The notes beneath the pieces are model-generated. The model did not search any database. It was not told where the DNA came from and was given only the letters and a program-made list of their open reading frames with translations. This document shows, piece by piece, positions 15,701 through 42,950 of a stretch of 64,000 nucleotides of DNA (position 1 is its first letter; each line of letters opens with the position of its first letter). A program made the translations under genes and the position numbers. The DNA comes from Parus major (lineage: Eukaryota; Chordata; Aves; Passeriformes; Paridae), in assembly GCF_001522545.3 (NCBI RefSeq), contig NC_031770.1, positions 20,606,105-20,670,104 on the forward strand. The letters are read 5' to 3'.

Positions 15701-18700
15701 TAGATACTCTCATAATAGCTTATGTAAGAGAGGATAGGCAACTCAGTAAAAGTGTAATGTTTGAAATACTCAACCTTCCAAGAAAACTGACAGTCAACTA
15801 TCCGTTCTGGCTGAAGAAAAGCATCATTTACCATTACTACTTTGAACTGGTGTTAAAGGAGCAGTAAAACTTTTCTGTGGAGTGCCACTGAATGATACAT
15901 CTCCTACAGTCAATGTGTGCTGACTTCTCTCAAGCTCACACTTGCATCTGTTTAGGAAAGAAGAAGCATAAATTAATAATGGAAACTAAAAATTAATTAG
16001 TTATTTTAAGAGCCTAACATACATTAATAAATTATATGATTCTAAGAACTTAAAGATCAAGTCAAGACACATCCATTGAAAAATTCTAGGTGATATAACA
16101 CAAAAACATGAAAATATTTTATTTAAAGTTCCAGTGTGCTTAATCAAGTACATAGGAGGCAAAGCTAAAACACAAAAATCAAGTTCTAAGCAGATGAAAA
16201 TCAGTTAGAACTGTTTGAGGTCTGACTGTATGAAGCTGTAGTTCAGCTAAACATGTAAAATGACTGTAAGTACTGAGAATATCCAACTCTTACTCTTCAG
16301 TGAATATCTTTATGGCAGGAAACACAACTTTCAGTTGTTATGTTCTGATACTGCACACTTTCAGAAAACTATGCATACCTCATAATCATGCAAGGGAGTA
16401 CTCTCCACTCAACAGGCCATTTTTCATGTGTCCCATTCACATCACTACTCAAAACACCACAGCATTTGAGAGTCTTTTGTGAGCTTGAAGAGTTACCAGG
16501 GCATCCAAGGAAACCCTATAACTACTTCAGAGACCATAGGACCAACTTCAGGACTACTTCTGTCCTGCTCAGTGAGCACAGGTTGATAAGATGATAGTCC
16601 CAGTGCCAGTCCCACTGCATCAGTGACTCCACGTTTGCCTTTCCATTCCCCACCTCTTTTACAGCTCAATGCTAAGAGCTCCTCTCCCAGAGGACTGTCA
16701 GTTGGGATGAAGTGGCAAATGACCACACACCAAACAAAATGCAGACAAATACAAAATCACAAACGATTGCCAAGAATGAGGTGCAATGCAGTTAACTGCT
16801 ATTTTGCAATGAACAGTTATGTAAAATAATATAATGGGAAAGTAGAACACAGCAAACAAGACTTAATTTTGGGAACAGATAAATGGAACACATATTCTCA
16901 GTTTGCAACCTCTTTGTCCCAACATTTGACAGCAGATACAGAGAACATTAGTGAGGTTCAACCAACCCTGTTGAACCTCACTAGATTCTTTAGTGATGGA
17001 TCTCAGCAACTCCTTGAACAAAGCTGGTGTTTCTACATGCCAAAAATAGTGTTGCATTATTTCTCACAGCTGTCAAATAACTCTCTTTAGTTTTCACAAA
17101 AAACAAAGAGAAAAAAAAAAACAAAGGAGTAACACAGCTTCTTTATTTGCTTCTATTAGGACCTGTATGAGGCATTAGCAAAAATATGACAAAATAACCA
17201 TTGTAAATACGTTAGAGACATACAGCAAGTCCTCACCTTTTCAGTTCTTGTTCTAGCCTTTCAATGTCCTTCTTGCAGGAATTCAGCTGACCTGACTGAA
17301 TGTTGACTTGAGATTCTTTTATTTGAAGATCATGTGAAATTTTCTGCTTTGCTTTCTCAAGATTATCACACAACTCCATCAAGCTCTGGTTCTCTCTTTT
17401 CAGTATTGCAGATTCATTTTTTTCATTTTCAACCTAGTTGAAACAGAGACATTTTTGAAATTATCAACACCTCTCTATACTTCAGTGCATTTATTATTTT
17501 AGTAACAAAATTTTACATGCTTTTATTTTCTTCCTAATACTTTAAAATCCTGACAGCTTTAAAAACCTCAGATGTACACATTGTTTAAATATTCTTGGGT
17601 GTGAACAAAACCCACATTTCATAAAATTCAACTCAGTGACATTAACAGTTTCTATTTATTGACAAGATATGAACTCTTCAAAAAATTCATCAATCCCTAA
17701 ATACTAATAATCATCATTAGTCCACATTCTTCACTGATCATATCACTTCCCTTTCCAGCCTATCTTAAGCAGCCAGAAGATATTGGCTCACTCCACAAAG
17801 TGTGCACAATAATTATCAAAGGTCACAGCATTGAAGACAGTGTCTGGCAGGAAAGATGTCCTTCTCTACCCTGGAGGAGCATCCAAGGCACATCATCTTT
17901 GGCACAATGTTGTTCTTTTGACGAAAAATTGTATTTCCTCCTGCTTCTGAGAGTCTTAAAGCACCCCTTCTTTTTTGGGGGGAGCACAGCAATTCCTTGG
18001 AATGGTTGAAACACTTTCCTGGAAACTCACAGGAAGAAACTGCTAGGCCTAAGATTTTCTAGAAAGTTGTAGCAATCTAAAGGGACTAACACACAACCTT
18101 TGTGAATTGTCTCTGAGCTGAGCTGTAGTCAAATATTCAAAAAAAAAAAAAAATTGAACCAAATGGATCACTGCTGACCTGAAACATGGCAAGACCCTGA
18201 CCAATTACGTCTTTAGTCCCCTGGCTAGAGGGCTGATGGTTAGATGAAATGTAAAATTACAGCTGTAAAAATTAAAAGGAGCACCAAATCCTAAAATTCA
18301 GTCTCTACAAGGAAAGAAACCTAAGGAATAACATAAACTAAGATTTTAGGTAGGCAATTACCTATTGTAAGCAAGGTGAAATAAGAAGAGGCTACCAACT
18401 GAGCAACTCTGGTATATGAAACAGGCCCAGTCACTATCATGGATTTTAACAGGTATAACAATAAAATGTTTACTCTCCTAATCATAAACAGCTGTAGAAA
18501 ACCTTCAAAGTACACATAAATATCTAGAGATAGAAAATCATACCAAACAGATAGGAAGCAGGAATTATATTAACAACCAAAAAGAAATAAACAGAGAGAA
18601 GAATATGATCAGTATTAAGTAAGATAAAGACAAACAAATTCTGTGCTACCTTGCCTTTCAGTCAGGGAGAAGAAGCAAAGCACTAATCCATTCCATAACA

Positions 18701-18925
18701 ACAACCAGCAGAAAATAAACTGTTGTAACAGTGTTTGGCATGGAAAGTGGCATTTTGCATTACCTTCTGCTTCTGTTTCTGCAAAGCTGCCTCCAAAGTC
18801 TCTAGCTGGTATTGCCTTTGCTGACGCTCCTTTTTAAGCTTATCCACTTGACTTTCCAGCTCATGGATCTTCTGCAGGACTCTGGGGGAGAGGCCCTCTT
18901 TCCATTCCTCCACAGCCCAGCTCAT
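1..18925 (-). CDS. CENPF: CENPF, 5' part of coding region (exons 2-12, runs off left edge)
   Basis: Centromere protein F (mitosin) is a very large coiled-coil protein that accumulates in G2, sits at the nuclear envelope and outer kinetochore in mitosis, and binds microtubules through its ends. The spliced CDS is join of the complements of 18764-18925, 17237-17433, 15832-15947, 14731-14822, 12153-12420, 10449-10651, 7441-7566, 5628-5756, 3941-4063, 1210-1345 and <1-726. This gives 2278 nt, about 759 residues of a protein usually near 3000 residues. Every junction has GT and AG and the phases join without a shift. The product opens MSWAVEEWKEGL, like human CENPF, and stays similar throughout (for example IARHQASSSVFSWQQEKTP in exon 6). 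Nearly all of it is heptad-rich coiled coil, with a Ser/Thr/Pro-rich linker in exons 4-6. No in-frame stop was found in any exon. The symbol is firm; exact splice sites are from inspection only. Confidence 0.96.
1210..1345 (-). CDS. CENPF: CENPF exon 11 (residues 473-518)
   Basis: The acceptor is TTTGGTTTAG | GAAGTG and the donor ATGAAAA | GTGAGTTATG. It encodes EVKKEKNLLNCQLEKKLQ and ends LKQSQNFAEEMK, matching human LNQSQNFAEEMK. The 136 nt leave phase 1. Confidence 0.94.
2545..2892 (-). mobile_element. CR1 LINE, 3' end fragment
   Basis: The plus strand starts CCATAGAATCACACACTGGG, the reverse complement of the standard CR1 3' terminus. It continues through the hallmark segments (GTTGGAAGAGACTTTAAAGG; CAGCCTTTCCTTGTAGGAGA; GGTGCTCCATCCCTCTGATC). 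It is 5'-truncated, as is usual for CR1. It appears to lack an internal piece near 2640-2660, where the segment between the tail and the upstream part is shorter than in full copies. It lies in CENPF intron 10 in the same orientation as the gene. Confidence 0.93.
3941..4063 (-). CDS. CENPF: CENPF exon 10 (residues 432-472)
   Basis: The acceptor is GGTTTTCCAG | GTAATGG and the donor CTTTCAG | GTGAGC. Its 41 codons include QKLCRAEQALSAAQTKEADL, close to human QKLCRAEQAFQASQIKENEL. Phase 0 at both ends. Coiled coil. Confidence 0.95.
5628..5756 (-). CDS. CENPF: CENPF exon 9 (residues 389-431)
   Basis: The acceptor is GTTTTCTAG | GAACTC and the donor GACAAA | GTAGGTG. Its 43 codons read ELSCQQHSLQTLDQQYNQLR, then SKLNQELQQAKNDFNVLQAE. 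The human counterpart has LTQELQQAKNMHNVLQAELDK. Phase 0 at both ends, so exons 8 to 10 are each symmetrical units whose skipping would keep the frame. Confidence 0.94.
7441..7566 (-). CDS. CENPF: CENPF exon 8 (residues 347-388)
   Basis: The acceptor is ATTATTATAG | GTCCAAATG and the donor ACCAACAG | GTAAGG. Its 42 codons read VQMLEQKVKRLSEELNCQRQ, then NAESTRQSLEQKIKAKEKEY. Human CENPF has LSCQRQNAESARCSLEQKIKEKEKEF here. Phase 0 at both ends. Coiled coil. Confidence 0.94.
7784..8030. repeat. AT-rich low-complexity region
   Basis: Clustered TATATA, TATATGTA and AAGATA-type motifs over about 250 bases in CENPF intron 7. No unit is strictly tandem. No coding or RNA-gene character. Confidence 0.8.
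10449..10651 (-). CDS. CENPF: CENPF exon 7 (residues 279-346)
   Basis: The acceptor follows a T-rich tract (TTTTTTAAATTCAG | AACTAAA) and the donor is CACACAG | GTAAAATG. It encodes ELNSIIKDLEHQLQAQEK through KDKILNKTRDKLTQTSTQ, aligning with human ELRNKINELELRLQ through EKVLNKCRDEL. Long uninterrupted coiled coil. The 203 nt return to phase 0. Confidence 0.94.
12153..12420 (-). CDS. CENPF: CENPF exon 6 (residues 190-279), conserved linker with TPAR repeats
   Basis: The acceptor is TTGGACACAG | AAAATAAATC and the donor AACCAGG | GTATCTGG. The encoded block HREIARHQASSSVFSWQQEK is almost identical to human CENPF and is among the best-conserved stretches of the window. It is followed by EKTPARNQETPARGSS, which carries two TPAR tetrapeptides, each a full Cdk consensus. 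The exon closes with RRAQNQ, matching human LKAQNQ, in phase 1. Confidence 0.94.
14731..14822 (-). CDS. CENPF: CENPF exon 5 (residues 159-189)
   Basis: The acceptor is GTCTTTGTAG | ATGCTAAG and the donor CTTAAG | GTAAGT. It encodes DAKFEELEEKYKKKVQENKE and a following leucine-rich helix, matching the human SKYEDLKEKYNKEVEERK region. The 92 nt restore phase 0. A coiled-coil segment between two Pro-rich linkers. Confidence 0.92.
14915..14963 (+). mobile_element. Possible CR1 tail fragment
   Basis: GACCCTTCTAGCTTGAAACA and the following TTCTAGGATTCAATGATC resemble the last 50 bases of diverged CR1 copies (pyrimidine-rich segment, then ATTCTATGATTCTATGA). Too short for certainty. Confidence 0.4.
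15832..15947 (-). CDS. CENPF: CENPF exon 4 (residues 120-159), linker with Cdk-type sites
   Basis: The acceptor is CTAAACAG | ATGCAAG and the donor AGTAATG | GTAAAT. The product includes RCKCELERSQ, then a Ser/Thr/Pro-rich stretch GTPQKSFTAPLTPVQSSN. The TPQK tetrapeptide is a full Cdk consensus (S/T-P-x-K/R) and is also present in human CENPF as I remember it. The exon breaks the coiled coil and is the least conserved of the early exons. It ends in phase 1. Confidence 0.92.
16949..16983. repeat. Perfect 14-bp inverted repeat with 7-base loop
   Basis: TAGTGAGGTTCAAC, loop CAACCCT, then GTTGAACCTCACTA. All 14 positions pair and the sequence is mixed rather than simple. It lies in CENPF intron 3, about 250 bases downstream of exon 3 in the direction of transcription. 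No matching transposon was recognised. Confidence 0.95.
17237..17433 (-). CDS. CENPF: CENPF exon 3 (residues 55-120)
   Basis: The minus strand reads TTTCAACTAG | GTTGAAAATG at the acceptor and CTGAAAAG | GTGAGG at the donor. It encodes VENEKNESAILKRENQSLM and ends EQELK plus two bases of an Arg codon. This matches the human segment starting VENEKTEG, which is continuous with exon 2. Coiled coil throughout. The 197 nt leave phase 2, completed by the first base of exon 4. Confidence 0.95.
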
Positions 18926-18967
18926 ACTGGCCGGATTCTTGCTTCACATAAATGGATAGTGTTATGC
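18764..18967 (-). CDS. CENPF: CENPF exon 2 (start codon; residues 1-54)
   Basis: The acceptor is at 18968-18969 and the donor GTAATG at 18763-18758. The first 42 nt are untranslated and the ATG lies at 18925-18923. The 54 codons end in phase 0 with a QKQKQK stretch. The start is chosen because the peptide MSWAVEEWKEGLSPRVLQKI aligns from its first residue with human CENPF. The segment begins the N-terminal coiled coil, in the part of the protein reported to bind microtubules. Confidence 0.95.
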
Positions 18968-20137: not shown

Positions 20138-22842
20138 GAGGAGATGGGAGGCAATTTAGCCAAATATTTTCTACCCATAAATACAAAGACAATGAAAACG
20201 CCCCAAATAGTTTGTAAGTATGGTCTAACACAGAGCATAGAATGGACATGGCAACAATGAAGGCTGAAGGATTCTAAAGTTCCTGTGAAGCTCCATGGGT
20301 ATCTGTGACTGGTTTTTCAAATCCTCTGGTATTCCCCCACTACCCCACAACCATCTCTCTAGAGGGAGTTTTGGATTGTTCCTTTCCATCAGAATCCGTG
20401 ACTTGTGATTCTACAATCTGATTATCATTTTACCTATTTAAATGTACTGCCTCCTGTAACCGTTCTGAGAATATTTACTCAAGCACTGTTCTTTTAATCA
20501 TGTTTAGGAAACTGAGTTAAACAAATCTTCCCTGAAAAGTTAAACAGCTCACCAGTCAGCTGGTCAGAGTTCTGACTGTAAATAAATATGACACAACAAA
20601 CTCACCAGCACGTTGTTAAAAAAATCTCCAAACCATCTCCTGAATAAAACAAGCCATTGCAGTGATGGAACTGATCCATCATAAATGCTTCTTCACAAAT
20701 TACAAATAAAAAAAAAAAACAAAACAAAACAACCAAACAGGCTAGAAATTTCCATGGTGAACTTTATGCAGGTGTTCCTGAGGGAACAGCACAGAACAGC
20801 AATGAAGCAGGAACTACTTTAGAAAAGTGGAAAACCCTCACACAGTACTTCCAAATAATTAATGAGAGCTGAGAACCAGTCTGAACTGAAGGGGATCCTC
20901 TGCATGGTGGACAAGGGGCAAATGTTCTGTAAGAATAAAATACCCATTATATGCTACTTTCAGTAAGTGTTTCTCATTGGACAGTAACAAATGCTACTTA
21001 ATCAATTGTAGAAGCTGAAGAGTTTTCAATTTCTACAGATAATATTACAATGGGACTACAGATGGACATGGAGCTCTACCATTTAAACCAGTTCATCATG
21101 ATTAATCCCTCAGGGAACACTTCAGTGAAACAGCTTCAACTTCCAAGACTGGTGGCATATTTTTCAGAAGGGAATGAATGAGTAGAGGGAGCCTCCAACA
21201 TTCTTACAAGGCATGAAAAATGAAAATCAGCTGGTGTGTGCAGAGCTTTTAAGACACAGTCTGATTAACATCTGGATAACTGAAAGGGAACCTGACCATT
21301 GTTGTCAACTTAAATATAAGAAAACACTTCTGAAGCTGATTTCTAAGAATGGTCAGGTTTTCACTGGATTAATGATTTACAAATTGATTCTTTCATATTT
21401 GACAACCTTTATGTAACCATTGCAGGAATTAACTAATTATCATGAAAGATAAAAAGACTCATAAGGAGTACAGAAACCTGCTTTTTCTTTTGCCACATCA
21501 ACTTATTCTGCACAACACCTTTTTAAGTGTCAAGACATTAATTAACAAAAGTAAATATAAGAATAAAAATATTAGTAAATGTAAGATTGAATTATGAGAT
21601 ACAAGAAAAAGATCAAATTCTCTGAAAAAATAATAAGAAGTTATGAGGAATATTAATAGCAACCATCAGTTTGTCTAACACTTGTAATTATTTTCATTAT
21701 TCTCTACTGGCTAGAATTCTTAAGATCTTTCTAAAAGGCTCTCAAAGTCCCCTATTTCAGAGTTCCCCATGATTTTGAGCAAAGACTACCTCAAGTCTCG
21801 TGAACTGGCTTTTCTCTGTCCTTGAAATTCCATTCAGTTTTTGCCAAATGCCAAGCATCACCATTTAAGCTTTCTCACCTGCATTCTTTACTGCAATTTC
21901 TAATTAGGGGCTAAAACAGTAGGTAGAATAGAAAAGCCACTAAAGGTTAAACCTGTATTGCTACAGCTTATGTTAGTGTATATGATGGAACAAAACCAGA
22001 AGGGAAAGAAAGGAAAAGAGCGTCTGATGAGAAAATCTTCCCCTGCTTGGATACTGCAAGAGGCAAAAATCAGATGGAGCTTTTCCTTCATATTCTTTCT
22101 TGCCAAACTCAGAATCCATCAGGAAAAGCCAAATTCATGTAAGTGTATATATAAATATATATGCACATCAAAGGGAACTTGGGGAGCTGAAGCAATCCCC
22201 TTCACCCAGGGAAAGATAAATGGGCTGGGTACTTTGTGTCTGATGGTGTTCCACCTTCCCAACTTCCCTGTGGAGGCACCAGAGGCAAACACTTTGGCAG
22301 GCTGGGTGTGAAAGAGAAGACAGATCATTTTCCTTAGCCTCACCCAAACCCCACCCTGTACTAAATGATGCCTCTTGCATCTGGAAAACAGAATTCCCCA
22401 TCTCTGCCAATGCAAGAATGTAACTGAGAATGTGGTAGCAGTTTAGGTGCCAGTACTGCAGCTGCAGAGTTAAGTCTGCACTACTAGAACCCAGCGAGCT
22501 ACTGCTGTAAATATGATGTTTCGTTGTTTGTACACCCTTAGATTTCCTATTCTTCACATGGTTTTTCACAGAACACACAGCTTGTTTGGTGAACAGAATA
22601 AATGTTAAGGTGGATGCCATTGGGATGCATAGAGAACCTTACACCTTAAATTACTCAACAGCCTCTTGCTCTTAGAAAAGGTTGAAGTGACCTGCACAAT
22701 CTGTTTTCATAGTTTATTAACAAAATCAAGGACCACAGCATTTCACAAATTATAGCTCTATTCCCAACAGAAATGGGGGTGTTTCTCTAGTAAGTATTAC
22801 TGTATTTTTCATGTACCAATTGGAACTGTTACTGAAATGCTA

Positions 22843-23330: not shown

Positions 23331-24254
23331 TAAGGTGACACAGTCAATCACATGCAGGTGCTGTATAGGGACCTACAGGTTCAGCTCCTGGCAATTTAAA
23401 ACACTTCCAGGCAATGTTGCCATACTGCCACACTCCCTTCTGTCCCCCACTTACCACTGCTCCTTTGTGACAGCTTTGGTGCTCATCTGAACTGCCAGGT
23501 GAGAAGGTTAAACAGGTAAGAGGTATTATGCCAAGCAAAGACCTTTCTGGTAGCATCAGCACGTACACAAATACATTGGGCTGAAAACTGCCACATTATC
23601 TGGTTAGATAAATGCCTGTCCCAGCTCAGCAGGTAGAACAGGGATATGCAGGAGAGAATGAAGAGGTCTGTGGGGACACCAGCTCATATGAGCTAAAACA
23701 TCGTGTAACAAGACCCTAAGTCCCTGTGCTCTAATCCCTAACACCTATCTGTCACAAATGATAATAAGAAACCATTACACAAAAAATGAATTCTTGTGTT
23801 TTATAACCAGTGTGTTTTAAAGGGATAAAACTATCTTACAGCTTCTGCTTTCAATTCAGTCTCTGATATATTAAGGGCAATTACTCTGAATAATTTTTAT
23901 CACAGGAAAGTATTCTCTGACCTTTACATGCAGTGTAGTATTATTGTGATTTTTAAATAATATACAAACTTCTGCAAGAAGTGTTAACCCCTGGATTTAA
24001 AGCTGATGAGCAGTAAGAAAGATGGACCCACTACAACAAACAATAGTAAATTATTTAAACATATAAAGGATTGAAAACCAGGGTGCTTGTTAGTTGATAT
24101 TAGTAAATGTTTGTTTTGAATGTAAATGTTACTTGTTTAGCACTTGTTAGTATATTGGAAGGGTGGAAGAGGAAAGCAAATATCTAAAATGAAGTGTTTT
24201 TTATGCAAATTAACACATACCATCCTACCTGAATATGGGTTTGCAATAGCAAAT

Positions 24255-24274
24255 AGTATATGTGTGTATATATA

Positions 24275-24307
<33 letters not shown>

Positions 24308-24360
24308 ACGTATATATGTATATATATGTATATATGTATATATGTATATATATATGTATA
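24255..24360. repeat. Compound TG/TATG/TA microsatellite
   Basis: About 105 bases of alternating purine-pyrimidine repeat: TG units, then TATG units, then TATATG/TATA units. Likely polymorphic. It produces spurious open frames rich in Tyr/Ile or Val/Cys on both strands. Confidence 0.95.
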
Positions 24361-25424
24361 GCAATAGTTATAGTAATTAAAAGGTATTTACATCTTTCTT
24401 TCCTGCTCTAAAAACATTATTTTCAAACACTATGAATACAGTCATTAGCATAATGTTTAAAGGGCTAGTGTACAGTTAAGAGAATAATAAATAATTACAG
24501 CAATTACATTATGATCTGACATATGAAATCCATATTGTCCAGGGCTTCAAATTACCAGTTACTAAACTGTAAATAAGATTGGAAAACATTTGTTTCTTTA
24601 ATGGTGATTTTCCCCTCTCTTTGTAGTTCTGTTGCCAACTAGAAATGACAATACCAAGCAAATATTTCATGCTGCATATGTTAACACAAAAAATTACATT
24701 CATTATGCTATCAAAACCTGTTGTATCTTATGGGCAATGAGTTATGAGATTTCAAAGGGCACTTGGTAAGTTAGGAACATGAATCCTTCGTGGTCCATTC
24801 TTTCCTAACTTGCACAGATCTATAGCCTGCATCTCCTTTGGCCACAATTTTTGTTAGAACTGTATGCTTAACCACACACAAGTACATCTACTTTGAATAA
24901 CATTCTCTTCTAACCAGAGAGAAAAGCAGTTAAGAGAAAAGTGTGCTACATATAAACTAAAAGGCATGTACTTTTTTATAGCTGTCTCTGACTCTTGCCA
25001 TGTTTACCACCACCTTCTTAAAATGGGGAATTTAGAAAATGCCAGCTGGTAAATTAGGTTACCTCTATTTCTTGTCAGACCTCTCAAAGGTTTGTTTTTC
25101 CTTTGGCTTACATTCAATAATTTTCTCCCTCTATCATCTTTATCTATGTTATTAACTTTTCTTTATCACTATTTTTTAATTTCCCTTTTCCTCAAAGGCC
25201 ACTCTTCCAGCGGTACCCAGCCATGATATTATTAATATGCATAATAATTAATATGCATGATTGCCTTCTCAAGTCTGAGTTCTGCTTCTTTGTTGGCTTC
25301 TCTATTCTAGGTTCTTGATCATTTATCATGGCTGCTCTTGCTATGCTTAATCTTCAGTTTGAACATCCCCTTCCTATAAAGTATTCAAATGAAAGTCTTG
25401 AGCTCAAACTTTGTTTCTCCCTTG

Positions 25425-25788
25425 TTATGATCTGGGATGCACATAAGAATTCAAGTTTTGTTTCTTTCTAATCACTGCCCCCAGTTTCAGCTTTTTGTCA
25501 TGGAAGTTGATTTGAGTTTCTATTATTTTTTGAACATCCACACGGTCCAGGAAAGATACAAATCCATACCCTTTGGAAACACCAGTTCTGTCAGTAACTA
25601 CTTTTACATCACAACACACAGTATTGTATAATTTAAAGAAACTCCAGATTTCTGCTTCATTCACCCTTAAATATATTCCACCAACCAAGACTGTGTTTGG
25701 CATGATTTTTCCTTCTGGCAAAACATGACCTTGACTGACTGTTGACAAATGAAGTGGTTGCACAGTGGGTCTCTGCATTTGCAAACAT
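25425..25788 (-). pseudogene. DAZL: DAZL processed copy, 3'-truncated and frameshifted
   Basis: DAZL is a germ-cell RNA-binding translation regulator with one RRM and one DAZ motif. The copy is intronless across several DAZL exon junctions. A DAZL-like start is at 25788-25786 (ATG, then codons for FANAETHC). A net one-base frame change follows in the N-terminal tail. Then the RRM region reads open: LPEGKIMPNTVLVGGI (RNP2), TDRTGVSKGYGFVSF (RNP1), DVQKIIETQINFHDKKLKLG and VIRKKQNL, ending at a stop by 25425. One residue is gained in the loop before DVKVVTD. The DAZ motif and 3' UTR are absent and no poly(A) is seen. The RRM part is still open from in-frame ATGs upstream (25820), so an RRM-only peptide cannot be excluded. 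BOLL and DAZ are less similar. Confidence 0.85.
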
Positions 25789-25861
25789 GAATCACAGAAG
25801 CTAAGGTTGTGCCCACACACTTAAAAATAAATTAGGCTTCTAAACAAAAACAATATAAAAT

Positions 25862-25965
25862 TCTCTGGAAAAAAACAAAACAAACTTGCAGACAAAGTTT
25901 GTTCTATTTTTGGTTTGTTTTCAGGGTTTTTTAGGTTTTTTGGTATTGTTTTTTTTCCCCCAGAA
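25862..25965. repeat. T-rich / A-rich low-complexity linker
   Basis: The plus strand carries an A-rich run (GGAAAAAAACAAAACAAAC) near 25868, then T-rich runs ending in eight T's and CCCCC near 25950-25961. It separates the gag-like fragment from the DAZL copy. Read on the minus strand the right part is A-rich, but it lies 5' and not 3' of the DAZL copy, so it is not that copy's poly(A) tail. Confidence 0.75.
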
Positions 25966-26180
25966 TCAGGTAAAGGCAGCTCTGTACAAACTTCTGTCTC
26001 ATGGATTGTGTACAGTGGATCTCATCTGGATTTACATGGGACTGCTCTCTATTTGAATCCCTATAGATTACCTTGAGCACAGGTAATTCTCTCAGGTACT
26101 GGATACTCTTCTCCATGGTGTTCTGCCTGCTTGGGCACACTACTGGATCATCCTGGAAAGAACACCTCTCCCTCATGCTT
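25931..26180 (-). mobile_element. Gag-like fragment of an avian endogenous retrovirus (tentative)
   Basis: A short minus-strand frame contains NTMEKSIQYLREL and, further on, DEIHCTQSM. These recall a gag-type segment repeated in avian endogenous retroviruses. The recognition is from memory and is weak. The flanking minus-strand sequence up to about 26.4 kb is broken by stops. No LTR, protease or polymerase segment was recognised next to it. It lies about 150 bases 5' of the DAZL copy on the same strand, separated by an A-rich stretch. Confidence 0.4.
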
Positions 26181-26523: not shown

Positions 26524-26611
26524 TAGATATAGATATAGATATAGATGATAAAGATATAGATATAGATATAGATATATGTATGTATAAAATTTTATATATA
26601 TTTATATATAA
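26524..26611. repeat. GATATA-type microsatellite
   Basis: Tandem AGATAT units, interrupted once by GATGATAAAG and passing into TATATATTTATATATA. Simple repeat. Confidence 0.93.
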
Positions 26612-30700: not shown

Positions 30701-31984
30701 ATCAAAATCAAGAATCTGTGCTATTTCTCCCTCTCTCAGCTCCTGATCCTCTTACCATTAATAATCTGAGTAATTCTGACTCCAGTGAATCTGCTCACTT
30801 ACTCCTTCAGTAAAAGGTACAAGAAACAAACAGTAACAACAATTCCAAAATAGCGTCAAATCTCATTTATCACTATTTCAATAATTTCCCTTGGTTGCAA
30901 GAGTCCTTAAGTCCCTCAAAGTGTCACAGTTGTTTTAAAGGGATACCTGCCTTTGACATTTCTGTAGATGCCCATTGGTACCAGAGGTATTTGTATATGC
31001 TTTCTAGAATGTGGATTATTTTTGGAATGTGGATAATTTCAAATAAGTACAGTTTTTTCAGTCAAAAATAATTTTGCAAATTGCACATTAGCTATGATGC
31101 ACAAGAGGATCTACACATAATATCTATTATTCACATTGCTCTTATTCGTGCTTGATTTGGTGATTCAACACCGTTGTTAGCCTCAATCTTCCTGACAGTA
31201 TTCCTACAGTGTGATGTGTTCCCTGCTCCTTTTGTCATTTACACCAGGCATCAGATGGGCTTTCCCACATCTGCCAAGTCCTCGGCATTTCGTGTAATTA
31301 CAAACCACCATGTTCTAGGCCAACTTCAGGTTTTCTCCTGCTTGCTTTCCAGCAAGGCACAGAGGCATGACAGCAGCATCATGAGAGTTTTTCCATCACG
31401 GGTATTACCCTCTGTGGAGCTGGAAGAGGAGGGATAACCACACTTTTATAGAAGCGAGAGTCACACAGTAAGCAGGAGACTGAAAGGGCTGAGATGGGAA
31501 GAGCAGAAGCAGTCACAGGGAGGAATGGAGAGAAAACTATCCTGTCGCGCAAGGCTGCAGGAGATGGACAGGGAGTTAAGGAAGGGCAGAAGAGTGGTTA
31601 CAGAAAAGCAGGGCGGCACCGCGCCTCCGTACGGGAGGGCTGGAAGGAGGATCTCAGGAACTTCCAGGCCCACGCGTGCAGAGCCTGTCTCAGCTCCCCG
31701 CCTGCCCCTTCCCAAAGTCTGTCTGGGGGTGCTCCCCCAGCTCCCCCGGTGCTCCCGGGCGGCCCGGGACGACACGTGCCCGGAGCCCCGGAGCGGGAGG
31801 GGCGGGAAGGGGCCGGGAAGGGGCCGGCACCCGCACCTGGCAGCTCTGCCCTCCTCGGGAGAGCCGCCGCCGGCACCCGCCCGGATTGGCAGGAGCCTGC
31901 GCCCTCCTCTTCCTCCCTCCTTTTCCCTCCTCCGCGGGGTGGGTTTCAACCCTCCTCCTCCTTCCTTGGGGAGGGGGTAAGAGT

Positions 31985-32044
31985 TAAATAAAAAAAAAAA
32001 AAGAAAAATAAAAAGAAAGAAAGAAGGAGAAAGAGAAAAGAAAT
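31985..32044. repeat. Purine-rich (A/G) tract beside the CpG island
   Basis: About 60 bases, almost all A or G: a 13-base A run, then AAAG/AGAA units. A homopurine strand of this length next to a promoter can adopt triplex DNA; that is a general property, not something shown here. Confidence 0.9.
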
Positions 32045-32176
32045 CCCAAGTCACGTCCCCGACGTCTCCGGGCCCCGCGGCCGCAGCGGCCGCCCCACAT
32101 TCCTGGCATTCCTGGGCCGTGACTCCCCGCGCCGCCCCGGCCCCAGCCCGGCCCCGGCCCCGCCGCCTCCGGCTCG

Positions 32177-32396
32177 NNNNNNNNNNNNNNNNNNNNNNNN
32201 NNNNNNNNNNNNNNNNNNNNNNNNNNNNNNNNNNNNNNNNNNNNNNNNNNNNNNNNNNNNNNNNNNNNNNNNNNNNNNNNNNNNNNNNNNNNNNNNNNNN
32301 NNNNNNNNNNNNNNNNNNNNNNNNNNNNNNNNNNNNNNNNNNNNNNNNNNNNNNNNNNNNNNNNNNNNNNNNNNNNNNNNNNNNNNNNNNNNNNNN
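32177..32396. other. Assembly gap, 220 unresolved bases
   Basis: A run of N inside the CpG island. The sequence on both sides is extremely GC-rich, which is a common cause of missing bases. It probably hides the transcription start and much of the first exon. Long open frames that cross it are artefacts, because N codons are read as open. Confidence 0.99.
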
Positions 32397-32474
32397 GGCA
32401 GCCGCTGCCCGCGGGCCGGGACCGCCGCCTCCCGCGGGCGTGCACAAAGCCGGAGCCGCCGCGCTGCCCAGCAG
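32397..32474 (+). other. PTPN14: Presumed PTPN14 exon 1 (5' untranslated), 5' end lost in gap
   Basis: The sequence after the gap ends GCTGCCCAGCAG | GTAAGGAGCC, a near-perfect splice donor, and no ATG lies between the gap and the donor. PTPN14 is a FERM-domain tyrosine phosphatase that restrains YAP in the Hippo pathway. In mammals its first exon is untranslated and is followed by a very long intron. The start of the exon is in or left of the N run. An alternative donor, CCTGCG | GTAAGC, lies at 32696/32697. The gene identity is inferred from neighbours, not from protein sequence. Confidence 0.5.
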
Positions 32475-35400
32475 GTAAGGAGCCGCCGCCGAGTTCGCTC
32501 GAGTTCGGGCGCGTCCCCGCGCAGACTTTGAAAAGCCCGAGCAGCGCCTCGCACTCGGAGTGTGCGGTCGGCAGCGTTTGCGCGGGGCTCGCTGTGCGCG
32601 GCAGCGGGCTAGCACAGCTCCGCCGGGTCTGCATCGCTGCCTGTGAACCACCAAAATAGCCACGCTTGGGTTACGAATGCCAGTCGGTGACCTGCGGTAA
32701 GCGAGCCTTGGACCGTCTGTCCAGCCCGTGAATTTCATCTGTTAGACACACAGATAACACGGCATTTGTCTAGTCAAGAGGTATTTGTAAATAGCGAGGA
32801 ACGGGCAGGGCTCCGTGCTGGGCTGCCCCTATTTACATCGCGGCATGCCCGTGTTTGCCTTCCTCCCCGCCCGGGGCTTTACCTTGCTCTTTGTTAGTTA
32901 CAGTCAAGCCTAAACTGGCCGTCTTCAGCAAGTCTGTAACTCTGCCGAGTGCCGCAGCAAAGATCGCGGCGAGGCAGAGAAGAGTGACATCTGCTCTCGT
33001 TTCTGATGTGGCAAAGTCGATGAATTGTTAAGATCTCAAACCAGCTCACTTTATTGGGGTGTATTTGGGACAAGCGTTACATAATGTATGTGTGGTATGT
33101 GGATATGATGTGTGCTTGCTGGAGCTTTCCTATCGAGTATGTTTTATCTCTCTGATTTGCATAAAATAATCATATGTTTCCATTATAAGCAACTTTTTGG
33201 TTGGTTGTAACTTTAACAAGGTGGGAACAGTGACTCGTAAAAGGCTCAGATTCATTATGGTATTGCCCAAGAAGTTTTCTGGGATTTTTGGCATGTAGCC
33301 TGAAACCATAGAAGAAATGCTTTTACCAGAAGCCAGTTCTTTTTTCTTTAAACTCGTGCAGATAGTTGCTACAGGGTTTAGTTATTCCAAAAGCACTGTT
33401 ACATGCTGCAGTTCCTCAAAGTTTGAAAAACTATTCATATAAAATGGCTCCCCCCCTTACCAAATCACAAGTCACCACCTGCCAACTTCCATATTATGAG
33501 AGGACATAGCTCTTTTTGAGGAGAGATGTGAAGGGAGGCAGTCCCAGCAGGGACTGTGTTCTCGTTATCCAGCTGAAAATGTCCCATCAAATATGAGTGA
33601 CAAAATACAGATGAAGCAGCTTTTGCTCTTGGCCTCTGGGGGTTTTGTTGCTGACATCTAGTACTTGTTACATGGTATAAAATAGAGGGTGTGTTGATAT
33701 TATAGTAATGCAAATAAGCTTTAGGACCTGTTCAGTTATTGGCAGTAGTTGAACTCTTTCTGGTATCTTTAGAAGGCTGTGCCAGAGTTGCTTACAGACA
33801 GAGGGCACTTGTGGATATCTCATGGGTCATGATACAAAACTTGGGAGCTTTGCAAACTTAGGGGCTGAACCACAGTCCATCAGCAAAAAAAAAAAAAAAG
33901 ATAGTCCCTAAAATCTGTGGCAGAATTTGTGGGCCATCAGTTCTGCCAGTGCATTTGTGTGTGGGAAGCTGTAAAGCATGTCTGTCTTGATGCATCCTCA
34001 AGGAATCCAGTGGTGCAGACCAAGGCCAGAGCAAGGGCTGCTAGGTTGATCTCTGTACTGAGCAATGTGAGCTTTTGTATCTACCTTATATTTAGAGTTT
34101 TACACGTGCCTTTTAAATGTTTCTGTAATAGTAGCAGAAGTAGCTTTGGCGCAGCTTGTTCATGAGAGTTAATTAGCAACCAGTGTTAGTACTAATGACT
34201 GACTTTTCTCTTGCTCATTCTTGTCCAGCAGAAGCCCATGAGTCAGTTACTATAACTTAGGTATGGAATGGGTTTCTATGAAATGCATCCACTCTTGTGC
34301 ACTTAGCAAATTGCTTTGGCCAACAGTGGCTCCTCCAATCAGGGAGAAAGTATTTTACATATATAGACACAGAGTTGTGTGCAGAGTTCTGGTAACTCTA
34401 TGGCTTCCTTTTTCTGTTTATTTGGTACTGCTGAGCCAATCTGCTGCTCTTCCTTCTGTTTCTCTTCATATGCTGTGAAGCTGTGTTTGATTAATTGTTA
34501 CTTAAGTAGCTCATTTTAGTACGGATTTACATTTAGCATAGGTATATGCTGTATGAAACTGAAGAACTCCATCTCTTCAGCTGGAAGCGAATTCTCTGTT
34601 TCAAGAGTTTGTCAGCTGAGGGAGGAATGTATAAACTGCTGGTACTATACAACAGGTACAAAGTTTTCAGCAGGCTGTGCTGCTGCAGCATATATGTCCT
34701 AGTCCTGCAAAGACCCACCCATGTGCTTCAATTCATGTTCACGAATAGTGTGTTTGAAATCATGTGATTTCTTTTATATATGTAATAATAAACATGTATA
34801 CGAGTCCTTGTAGGAATCAGGCTATAATACTTAGTATGCAGTGTATCCAGCTCAGCTGTAAGAAGATTTCAATAAAGGCCTAATTTTTATGCTGAGCAAA
34901 TGCCATAAAAGTATTTTTTATTTCTAAGTCCACTGTGAAGTGCAACATACCTTCACCTATTATGCTTTGTCGAGTGCCATTTGAACAGATCCTGATCTTT
35001 GAAAATAAAGCAGGATGGTGTAAATTTTCCTCCTGTGAGGAGGGAGTATGGTACAAGATTGTGCACAAGATTCTCTGAAGTGAAAAAAGTTCCTTTTTAT
35101 AAATCTACTGATTTTCTATTCAAACTTCACGGATGTTGCTGCCTCCACCTATGAAATTGTTAAAAACCAAGAATTAAAGAGTAGTTCCTAAAGGAATGGA
35201 GGTAGAGCTGAGTTGAAGTCTATGTTGTGGTAAAAATAGGATTTTGGCTTCATTGTCTAACCCCTATTCTCCTGTCCCTGGTGCAGGGGACCTTAAAACT
35301 CAGTGAACAGGTGCAGCTTCCTCTGGTGGTGTTGGAATCAGTTCATGTCCAGATCAAGTGTAGCCTGTCCCATGGGGTGCCCTTGTTAAAGCCTTTTGGT

Positions 35401-42807: not shown

Positions 42808-42950
42808 AATCATAGAATATCCTGAGTTGGAAGGGACCCACAAGGATCATGGTGTGCAACTCCTGTCCCTGCACAGGATGAGCTCCAGAATTACACCATG
42901 TGTCCGAGAATGTTGTCCAAACACTTCTTAAATTGTCAGTCTCAGTAGAT
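42808..42950 (-). mobile_element. CR1 LINE, 3' end fragment
   Basis: Starts AATCATAGAATATCCTGAGT, then TTGGAAGGGACCCACAAGGA, and continues to TTGTCCAAACACTTCTTAAA. This is the reverse-complemented 3' end of a CR1 subfamily common in birds. 5'-truncated after about 140 bases. Confidence 0.92.

What the first reader, a model, noticed from the sequence alone, without database searches (positions are those of the whole stretch)
25425..25788. Intronless DAZL copy in an avian-type genome, RRM still open
The segment joins several DAZL exons without introns from the start codon through the end of the RRM, so it came from an mRNA. Bird genomes are poor in processed gene copies because CR1 rarely copies cellular mRNAs. 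The copy is 3'-truncated and has no poly(A). The RRM keeps RNP1 (GYGFVSF) and RNP2-like VLVGGI in one open frame, although the N-terminal tail is frameshifted. The source gene acts in the germ line, which favours heritable insertions. The copy may be an inert pseudogene or a source of an RRM-only peptide or antisense-type regulator.
Basis: partly seen in the sequence, partly recalled or inferred. Interest (0 to 1): 0.75.

Follow-up and report, generated by a model that had tools for sequence, protein, structure and literature searches.

The report
Ancient songbird DAZL retrocopy, now decaying
This is an old, truncated, intron-free copy of the germ-cell gene DAZL that several songbirds share at one spot in their genomes, and it looks like a slowly decaying pseudogene: a rare sort of element in birds, but otherwise ordinary.

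Summary
On the minus strand, window 25788-25431 carries the start codon, N-terminal tail and whole RRM of DAZL without introns. The copy stops in the VHPR codons with no poly(A) after it. The tail is out of frame (about 14 nt missing); the RRM frame is open to a TAA at 25425.

What is new is depth. The same copy occurs in Junco hyemalis, Cyanistes caeruleus and Serinus canaria and in three unnamed contigs. Ends of four of these six proteins also match flanking window sequence, so it is one orthologous insertion, upstream of CENPF. The seven copies form one clade (100/99), sister to the sampled passerine DAZL. The insertion probably predates the suboscine-oscine split, though AU tests do not reject a younger origin.

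No constraint is visible. The window's 19 changes in 105 residues hit conserved DAZL sites as often as neutral mutation would. The RNP2 aromatic residue is lost in 6 of 7 copies. The tit-type and canary copies carry different frameshifts. A stop-free RRM stretch is expected by chance in about 3 of 10 neutral runs.

Verdict: a decaying retropseudogene. Expression and true dN/dS could not be tested.

The parts
25431..25788 (-). DAZL retrocopy: from the initiator ATG (25788-25786) through the RRM to the VHPR codons (end 25431)
   Evidence: RRM_1 E 3.2e-10; mouse DAZL 2xs2 E 7.6e-37; tblastn of the named avian DAZL proteins P0004-P0014 ending at 25431, 68-77% identity
25738..25788 (-). Out-of-frame N-terminal tail (MFANAETHCATTS...), net loss of about 14 nt against the unbroken copies (hand count)
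   Evidence: tblastn of residues 1-17 of P0001 and P0002 to 25788-25738 (E 0.067 and 0.026) and of P0027 1-51 to 25788-25666; first 30 residues of Cyanistes P0027 identical to the window's out-of-frame reading
25425..25778 (-). Longest ATG-started frame over the RRM, 117 aa with stop TAA at 25427-25425; the start is an internal ATG, not DAZL's own
   Evidence: the ORF listing, sequence
25443..25703 (-). RRM part, with RNP2 VLVGGI (aromatic F changed to L) and RNP1 GYGFVSF; one extra codon against DAZL (VCCDV)
25908..25994 (-). 5' flank matched by the first 27 residues of the Serinus canaria model P0031
   Evidence: tblastn E 1.6e-4
23774..23809 (-). Downstream flank to which unnamed P0001 joins its copy directly (10 of 12 residues)
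   Evidence: tblastn E 0.011
21906..22016 (-). Downstream flank matched by residues 141-177 of the Junco hyemalis model P0003
   Evidence: tblastn E 3.6e-16
21436..21486 (-). Downstream flank matched by the last 17 residues of the Cyanistes caeruleus model P0027 (15 of 17)
   Evidence: tblastn E 3.2e-5
18686..18943 (-). CENPF N-terminal exon, the neighbouring gene on the same strand
   Evidence: PF10481 CENP-F_N E 6e-30

Best explanation
A spliced DAZL mRNA, probably in a germ cell of a stem-lineage passerine, was reverse transcribed and inserted about 6.5 kb upstream of the first CENPF exon found. The copy holds the start codon to the end of the RRM and lacks the rest of the mRNA, either because template or primer position was internal or because the 3' part was deleted later. 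It has since decayed in a neutral pattern: about 14 nt lost from the tail in the window and the blue tit, a frameshift in RNP1 in the canary line, a net four residues added after RNP1 in one unnamed bird. Shown: DAZL identity, no introns, 3' truncation, shared flanks, single clade, neutral pattern of replacements. Inferred: germ-cell origin, passerine-stem date, lack of function. Open: which reverse transcriptase made it.
For: DAZL identity and continuity. Orthologues in Junco, Cyanistes and Serinus and in three unnamed contigs share, where readable, residues seen in no parental row of the alignment: YLR for DIR/DLR, EIW for EIR, FK for FE, HDKK for HGKK. Junco also has an ordinary DAZL (P0080), so P0003 is a second locus. 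Ends of four of the six related proteins match window flanks, on both sides of the copy. Tree: 7 copies one clade 100/99; Eupasseres parents without them 98/92; copies plus passerines 89/87. Neutral pattern: 12 of 19 window changes at sites at least 97% conserved in 116 DAZL rows, expected 10.5 +/- 2.0; pooled over six copies 28 of 49 distinct changes, expected 26.8 +/- 3.5. Share of neutral runs without a stop 0.31.
Against: The RRM frame is open in the window, P0001 and P0002 and, as far as the gene model shows, in Junco. For 49 missense changes about 2.5 stops would be expected and none is seen, though protein databases hide copies with stops. P0001 and P0002 keep the original start and an unbroken frame. 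The date rests on 123 columns; AU tests do not reject the copies grouping with oscines (dlnL 13.6, p 0.17), with suboscines (dlnL 10.9, p 0.21), with Eupasseres without Acanthisitta (dlnL 1.9, p 0.42) or with Acanthisitta alone (dlnL 0.9, p 0.46). No target-site duplication exceeds shuffled controls. A weak likeness of the 5' flank to the DAZL C-terminal part hints at a less simple origin.
Confidence: 0.86

Rival explanations
1. A retained retrogene: in some songbirds the copy encodes a short RRM-only protein (124-146 aa) that binds DAZL target RNAs without the rest of DAZL, and so competes with DAZL in germ cells.
For: P0001 (146 aa) and P0002 (124 aa) have unbroken frames from the DAZL start codon; P0002 has the fewest changes per readable residue (13 of 105) and keeps the RNP2 aromatic; the window has an internal-ATG frame of 117 aa over the whole RRM.
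Against: Changes fall on conserved sites at the neutral rate; the RNP2 aromatic, F in all 114 DAZL rows filled there, is L in 6 of 7 copies; canary frame broken inside RNP1 and window and blue tit tail out of frame. Expression could not be sought.
Confidence: 0.06
2. A copy made from a rearranged or circular DAZL RNA: a piece of the DAZL C-terminal coding part lies just 5' of the N-terminal part, which would also explain the missing poly(A).
For: Window 26021-25914 (-) resembles the C-terminal part of oscine DAZL (Cyanocitta P0058, 37% with a 7-residue gap, E 0.043); local score 58 against 29.6 +/- 3.7 for shuffled DNA.
Against: Against real window sequence the chunk ranks second of 82 (58; another chunk scores 59; mean 40.7, sd 4.9; best of 35 queries). 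The likeness is best to young oscine sequences; Columba, Alca and Acanthisitta score no better than reversed queries there. The stretch is A-rich. The ATG before exon 2 sequence fits a linear mRNA.
Confidence: 0.03
3. A non-coding regulator: the copy is transcribed in gonads, sense or antisense, and acts on DAZL mRNA by pairing or as a source of small RNAs.
For: The copy keeps long stretches of DAZL-like sequence; such use needs no open frame. Not tested here.
Against: No Rfam match at the gathering thresholds in the window. About 10% of sites have changed by the estimate, so pairing would be imperfect. CENPF transcription runs away from the copy.
Confidence: 0.03
4. Several independent DAZL retrocopies in songbirds rather than one old insertion.
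For: AU tests on the short alignment do not exclude younger placements; P0002 lacks the extra codon found in the others, and P0002 and P0024 carry no flank that could be matched.
Against: One clade at 100/99 with shared private residues including P0002, and shared flanks for four of six.
Confidence: 0.02

Closest known systems
Processed retropseudogenes (retrocopies) of birds
   Same: Intronless copy of a spliced mRNA at a new place, frame decaying, shared by related species; about half of bird retrocopies are reported as not species-specific (passages of PMC13320880).
   Different: 3'-truncated while keeping the start codon; parent is a germ-line RNA-binding gene; probably old enough to span much of the passerines.
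Tailless retropseudogenes of therian mammals
   Same: 5' part of the RNA kept, 3' part and oligo(A) tail missing (passages of PMC5322556).
   Different: Those are tied to LINE1 and flanked by target-site duplications; that study failed to find any in chicken, and no duplication is detectable here.
Parental DAZL of birds
   Same: 68-77% identical over the RRM and its lead-in (P0004-P0014).
   Different: The copy lacks everything after VHPR and all introns tested; RNP2 aromatic lost in 6 of 7 copies.

Membership tests
Processed retropseudogene | Homologous to the mRNA of an intron-bearing gene, introns absent | tested here: met
   Continuous from exon 2 to exon 5 sequence and across the points where P0136 and P0025 appear to read into introns
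Processed retropseudogene | Poly(A) tail at the 3' end | tested here: not met
   Copy stops in coding sequence at 25431 with no A-run after it; a 3'-truncated copy would lack it, so this weakens rather than refutes
Processed retropseudogene | Target-site duplication | tested here: inconclusive
   No match above shuffled 5' flank at either of two tested 3' boundaries; the 5' boundary is unknown and the insertion old
Processed retropseudogene | New locus, separate from the parent gene | tested here: met
   CENPF neighbour; Junco has P0003 and an ordinary DAZL P0080 as separate proteins
Processed retropseudogene | Disabled frame or neutral evolution | tested here: met
   Tail frameshift in window and Cyanistes, RNP1 frameshift in Serinus and P0024, neutral distribution of changes; true dN/dS not computed
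Tailless retropseudogene (LINE1 type) | 3' truncation with target-site duplications of 8-35 nt | tested here: inconclusive
   3' truncation met; no duplication found; RNA structure at the break not tested
LTR-mediated retrocopy | Copy lies between or beside LTRs | tested here: not met
   Comparison of 23700-26000 with the whole window at E 1e-3 gave only the self match; eroded or lone LTRs not excluded
Functional retrogene | dN/dS clearly below 1 and expression | not testable with these tools
   No DNA of parent or orthologues and no reads; protein-level proxy shows no constraint

The most novel reading that the evidence does not exclude
In an early-branching passerine group (the source of P0002), the copy survives as an RRM-only DAZL competitor made in germ cells, kept for tens of millions of years, while it was lost piecemeal in tits and finches.
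Probability: 0.05. Interest if true: 0.75.

Novelty: new member of a known kind. Interest (0 to 1): 0.3.

Why it matters
It is a clean, roughly datable retrocopy in a group that makes few of them. Presence or absence upstream of CENPF can be scored across passerines as a rare genomic marker and as a clock for neutral decay, and it asks which reverse transcriptase copies mRNAs in birds. Sequence databases hold it as gene models called RRM proteins in three songbirds, which should be corrected if it is a pseudogene.

Tried and rejected
Better match to another RRM gene: rejected, DAZL leads by 23 orders of magnitude in E-value. LTR copies beside it: none found. CR1 tail repeats beside it: five short patterns tried, hits only at 974 and 42810-42818. 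Target-site duplication: not above shuffles. A spliced intron explaining P0001's jump of 1.62 kb: the window ends of that stretch are TC...AC, not GT...AG, so a deletion or insertion is likelier; unresolved. A DAZL C-terminal piece in the 5' flank: weak, kept only as a rival. PTPN14 as the gene of the second GC-rich island: no significant match of a recalled stretch (best E 0.14), so unproven. AlphaFold2 on the 15-row alignment gave mean pLDDT 41.8, too poor to use. A scan of viral contigs found no relative. An earlier count said about 20 nt are missing from the tail; recounting gives about 14. On checking, the absence of further DAZL in the window had been tested only with partial proteins, so searches were added; because of their weak flank match a rival was added at 0.03 and the other odds were trimmed to make room.

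Full report
What is there. On the minus strand the window has a stop-to-stop frame of 131 codons at 25820-25425. It matches Pfam RRM_1 (E 3.2e-10) and, among PDB sequences, mouse DAZL best by far (E 7.6e-37; best other protein E 1.7e-13). The DAZL start codon lies at 25788-25786 in a different frame; reading that frame gives MFANAETHCATTS, which aligns with the unbroken tails of P0001, P0002 and P0024. Counting codons by hand, the window lacks about 14 nt there. After that the frame is open through both RNP motifs to VHPR (25431), a TCA codon and TAA (25427-25425). An internal ATG at 25778 would give 117 residues.

Why it is a retrocopy. In human DAZL, Pro6, Asn10 and Ile37 are in exon 2 and Arg115 in exon 5 (passages of PMC1557510); the window runs through the matching positions without an intron. 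Two bird-type records appear to read into introns: unnamed P0136 after GGIDIK and Bambusicola P0025 after DVQKIVE; bat-like P0137 does so after GGIDVR. The window passes straight through these points. DAZL homology ends at 25431. No record that I read shows an exon boundary exactly there; one unverified Colinus model joins KIVE to PRPLSF, two codons from the end (P0128). There is no A-run after the end, no target-site duplication above shuffles and no repeat pair flanking the copy. Of 90 DAZL-type proteins of at least 240 aa (of 99 fetched after P0038), all 90 hit the copy and none extends below 25428; other places in the window match with E 0.043 or worse.

Where it lies. The CENPF N-terminal exon is on the same strand at 18943-18686 (PF10481, E 6e-30), so the copy ends about 6.5 kb upstream of it. 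A second GC-rich island at 31.4-32.7 kb may be the promoter of the next gene; PTPN14 is recalled as CENPF's neighbour but was not confirmed.

The same copy in other birds. Three protein searches (38, 315 and 33 proteins at E 1e-3 or better, of 42, 7996 and 39 candidates scored; the second listed only its best 120) returned, besides ordinary DAZL, six proteins with residues (YLR, EIW, FK, HDKK, where readable) that no parental row of the alignment has: P0003 Junco hyemalis, P0027 Cyanistes caeruleus, P0031 Serinus canaria and the unnamed P0001, P0002 and P0024. Junco also has an ordinary DAZL (P0080). In tblastn against the window ends of four of the six match flanking, non-DAZL window sequence on the same strand and in order: P0031 to 25994-25908 (E 1.6e-4), P0001 to 23809-23774 (E 0.011, 10 of 12 residues), P0003 to 22016-21906 (E 3.6e-16), P0027 to 21486-21436 (E 3.2e-5). 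P0002 and P0024 have no such extra sequence. This shows one orthologous insertion, at least for those four and the window. The first 30 residues of the Cyanistes model equal the window's out-of-frame tail, so the window is probably a tit or a near relative.

Age. A tree of 52 rows (7 copies and 45 DAZL rows chosen by me from those found; 123 columns) puts the copies in one clade (100/99), next to the sampled passerine DAZL (Acanthisitta, 8 suboscines, 18 oscines). The Eupasseres rows form a branch without the copies (98/92); copies plus passerines have 89/87. By eye, the second residue of the stretch after EI(R/W) + one (S-F-F and the like) is F in 6 of 7 copies (S in P0002) and in Acanthisitta, but V or I in the suboscine and oscine rows. 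So the insertion probably predates the suboscine-oscine split. Against this, AU tests do not reject grouping the copies with oscines (dlnL 13.6, p 0.17), with suboscines (dlnL 10.9, p 0.21) or with Eupasseres (dlnL 1.9, p 0.42), and no parrot or falcon DAZL was in the tree. Within the clade P0002 branches first, then P0001, then Junco, the window with Cyanistes, and Serinus with P0024.

Function. With no DNA of parent or orthologues, dN/dS could not be computed. As a proxy I compared the window with an ancestral passerine DAZL stretch inferred by eye. Of 105 residues 19 differ; 12 of the 19 are at sites conserved in at least 97% of 116 DAZL rows (rows with KGYGFVSF; the six copies and P0129, P0135-P0137 left out), where neutral simulation expects 10.5 +/- 2.0; the mean BLOSUM62 of the changes is also in the neutral range (P 0.30), and 31% of 2000 neutral runs have no stop. 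Pooled over six copies (Serinus left out as identical to P0024 there), 28 of 49 distinct changes are at such sites against 26.8 +/- 3.5 expected; about 2.5 stops would be expected with 49 missense changes and none is seen, but databases of predicted proteins select for open frames. The aromatic RNP2 residue, F in all 114 DAZL rows filled there, is L in 6 of 7 copies; that it contacts RNA is general knowledge of RRMs. Serinus and P0024 share a frameshift at GYGF. P0001 has a net four residues added before DVQKI. These are independent lesions, as in a decaying pseudogene. Open frames from the original start in P0001 and P0002 keep a small chance that some lineage used it.

A loose end. The 5' flank at 26021-25914 resembles the C-terminal part of oscine DAZL (Cyanocitta, 37%, E 0.043). 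The score (58) is far above shuffled DNA (29.6 +/- 3.7), but among 82 real 1.5-kb chunks of the window it ranks second (another reaches 59; mean 40.7, sd 4.9), and slower-evolving DAZL rows such as Columba, Alca and Acanthisitta score no better than reversed queries. I take it as chance in A-rich sequence, but a copy from a rearranged or circular RNA is not excluded.

Mechanism of origin. Germ-line expression of DAZL makes a heritable copy plausible (general knowledge). [quoted passage not shown] A 2026 preprint reports that about half of bird retrocopies are species-specific, so about half are shared (PMC13320880, passages). Which machinery made this one is open.

In print. Searches for DAZL with retrocopy and bird (0 papers), with pseudogene and passerine (0), 'DAZL processed pseudogene' (0) and DAZL with retrogene (8 listed, judged by titles and abstract starts, none on a bird DAZL copy) found no description. 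Only open-licence papers were searched.

Noticed in passing
25430-23810 (minus strand): Unnamed P0001 joins the last DAZL codon directly to sequence that in the window lies 1.62 kb further on; not a GT-AG intron, so a deletion in that bird or an insertion in the window's line, at the end of DAZL homology.
   Followed up: partly
26021-25914 (minus strand): Weak likeness of the 5' flank to the C-terminal part of oscine DAZL (E 0.043); ranks second of 82 window chunks, so probably chance.
   Followed up: partly
24256-24360 and 26524-26610: TA-rich microsatellites lie about 1 kb on either side of the copy.
   Followed up: no
829-2, 10727-10326 (minus strand): Long coiled-coil frames that look like CENPF exons by position and make-up (recalled likeness; no Pfam match above its cut-off).
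   Followed up: partly
31400-32740: Second GC-rich island; the window's N run (220 N in all) lies in it. Probably the promoter of the next gene; identity not established.
   Followed up: partly
P0003, P0027, P0031 (UniRef entries): Gene models in Junco, blue tit and canary include the copy, with extra residues that match flanking window sequence, as automated models around a pseudogene would.
   Followed up: partly
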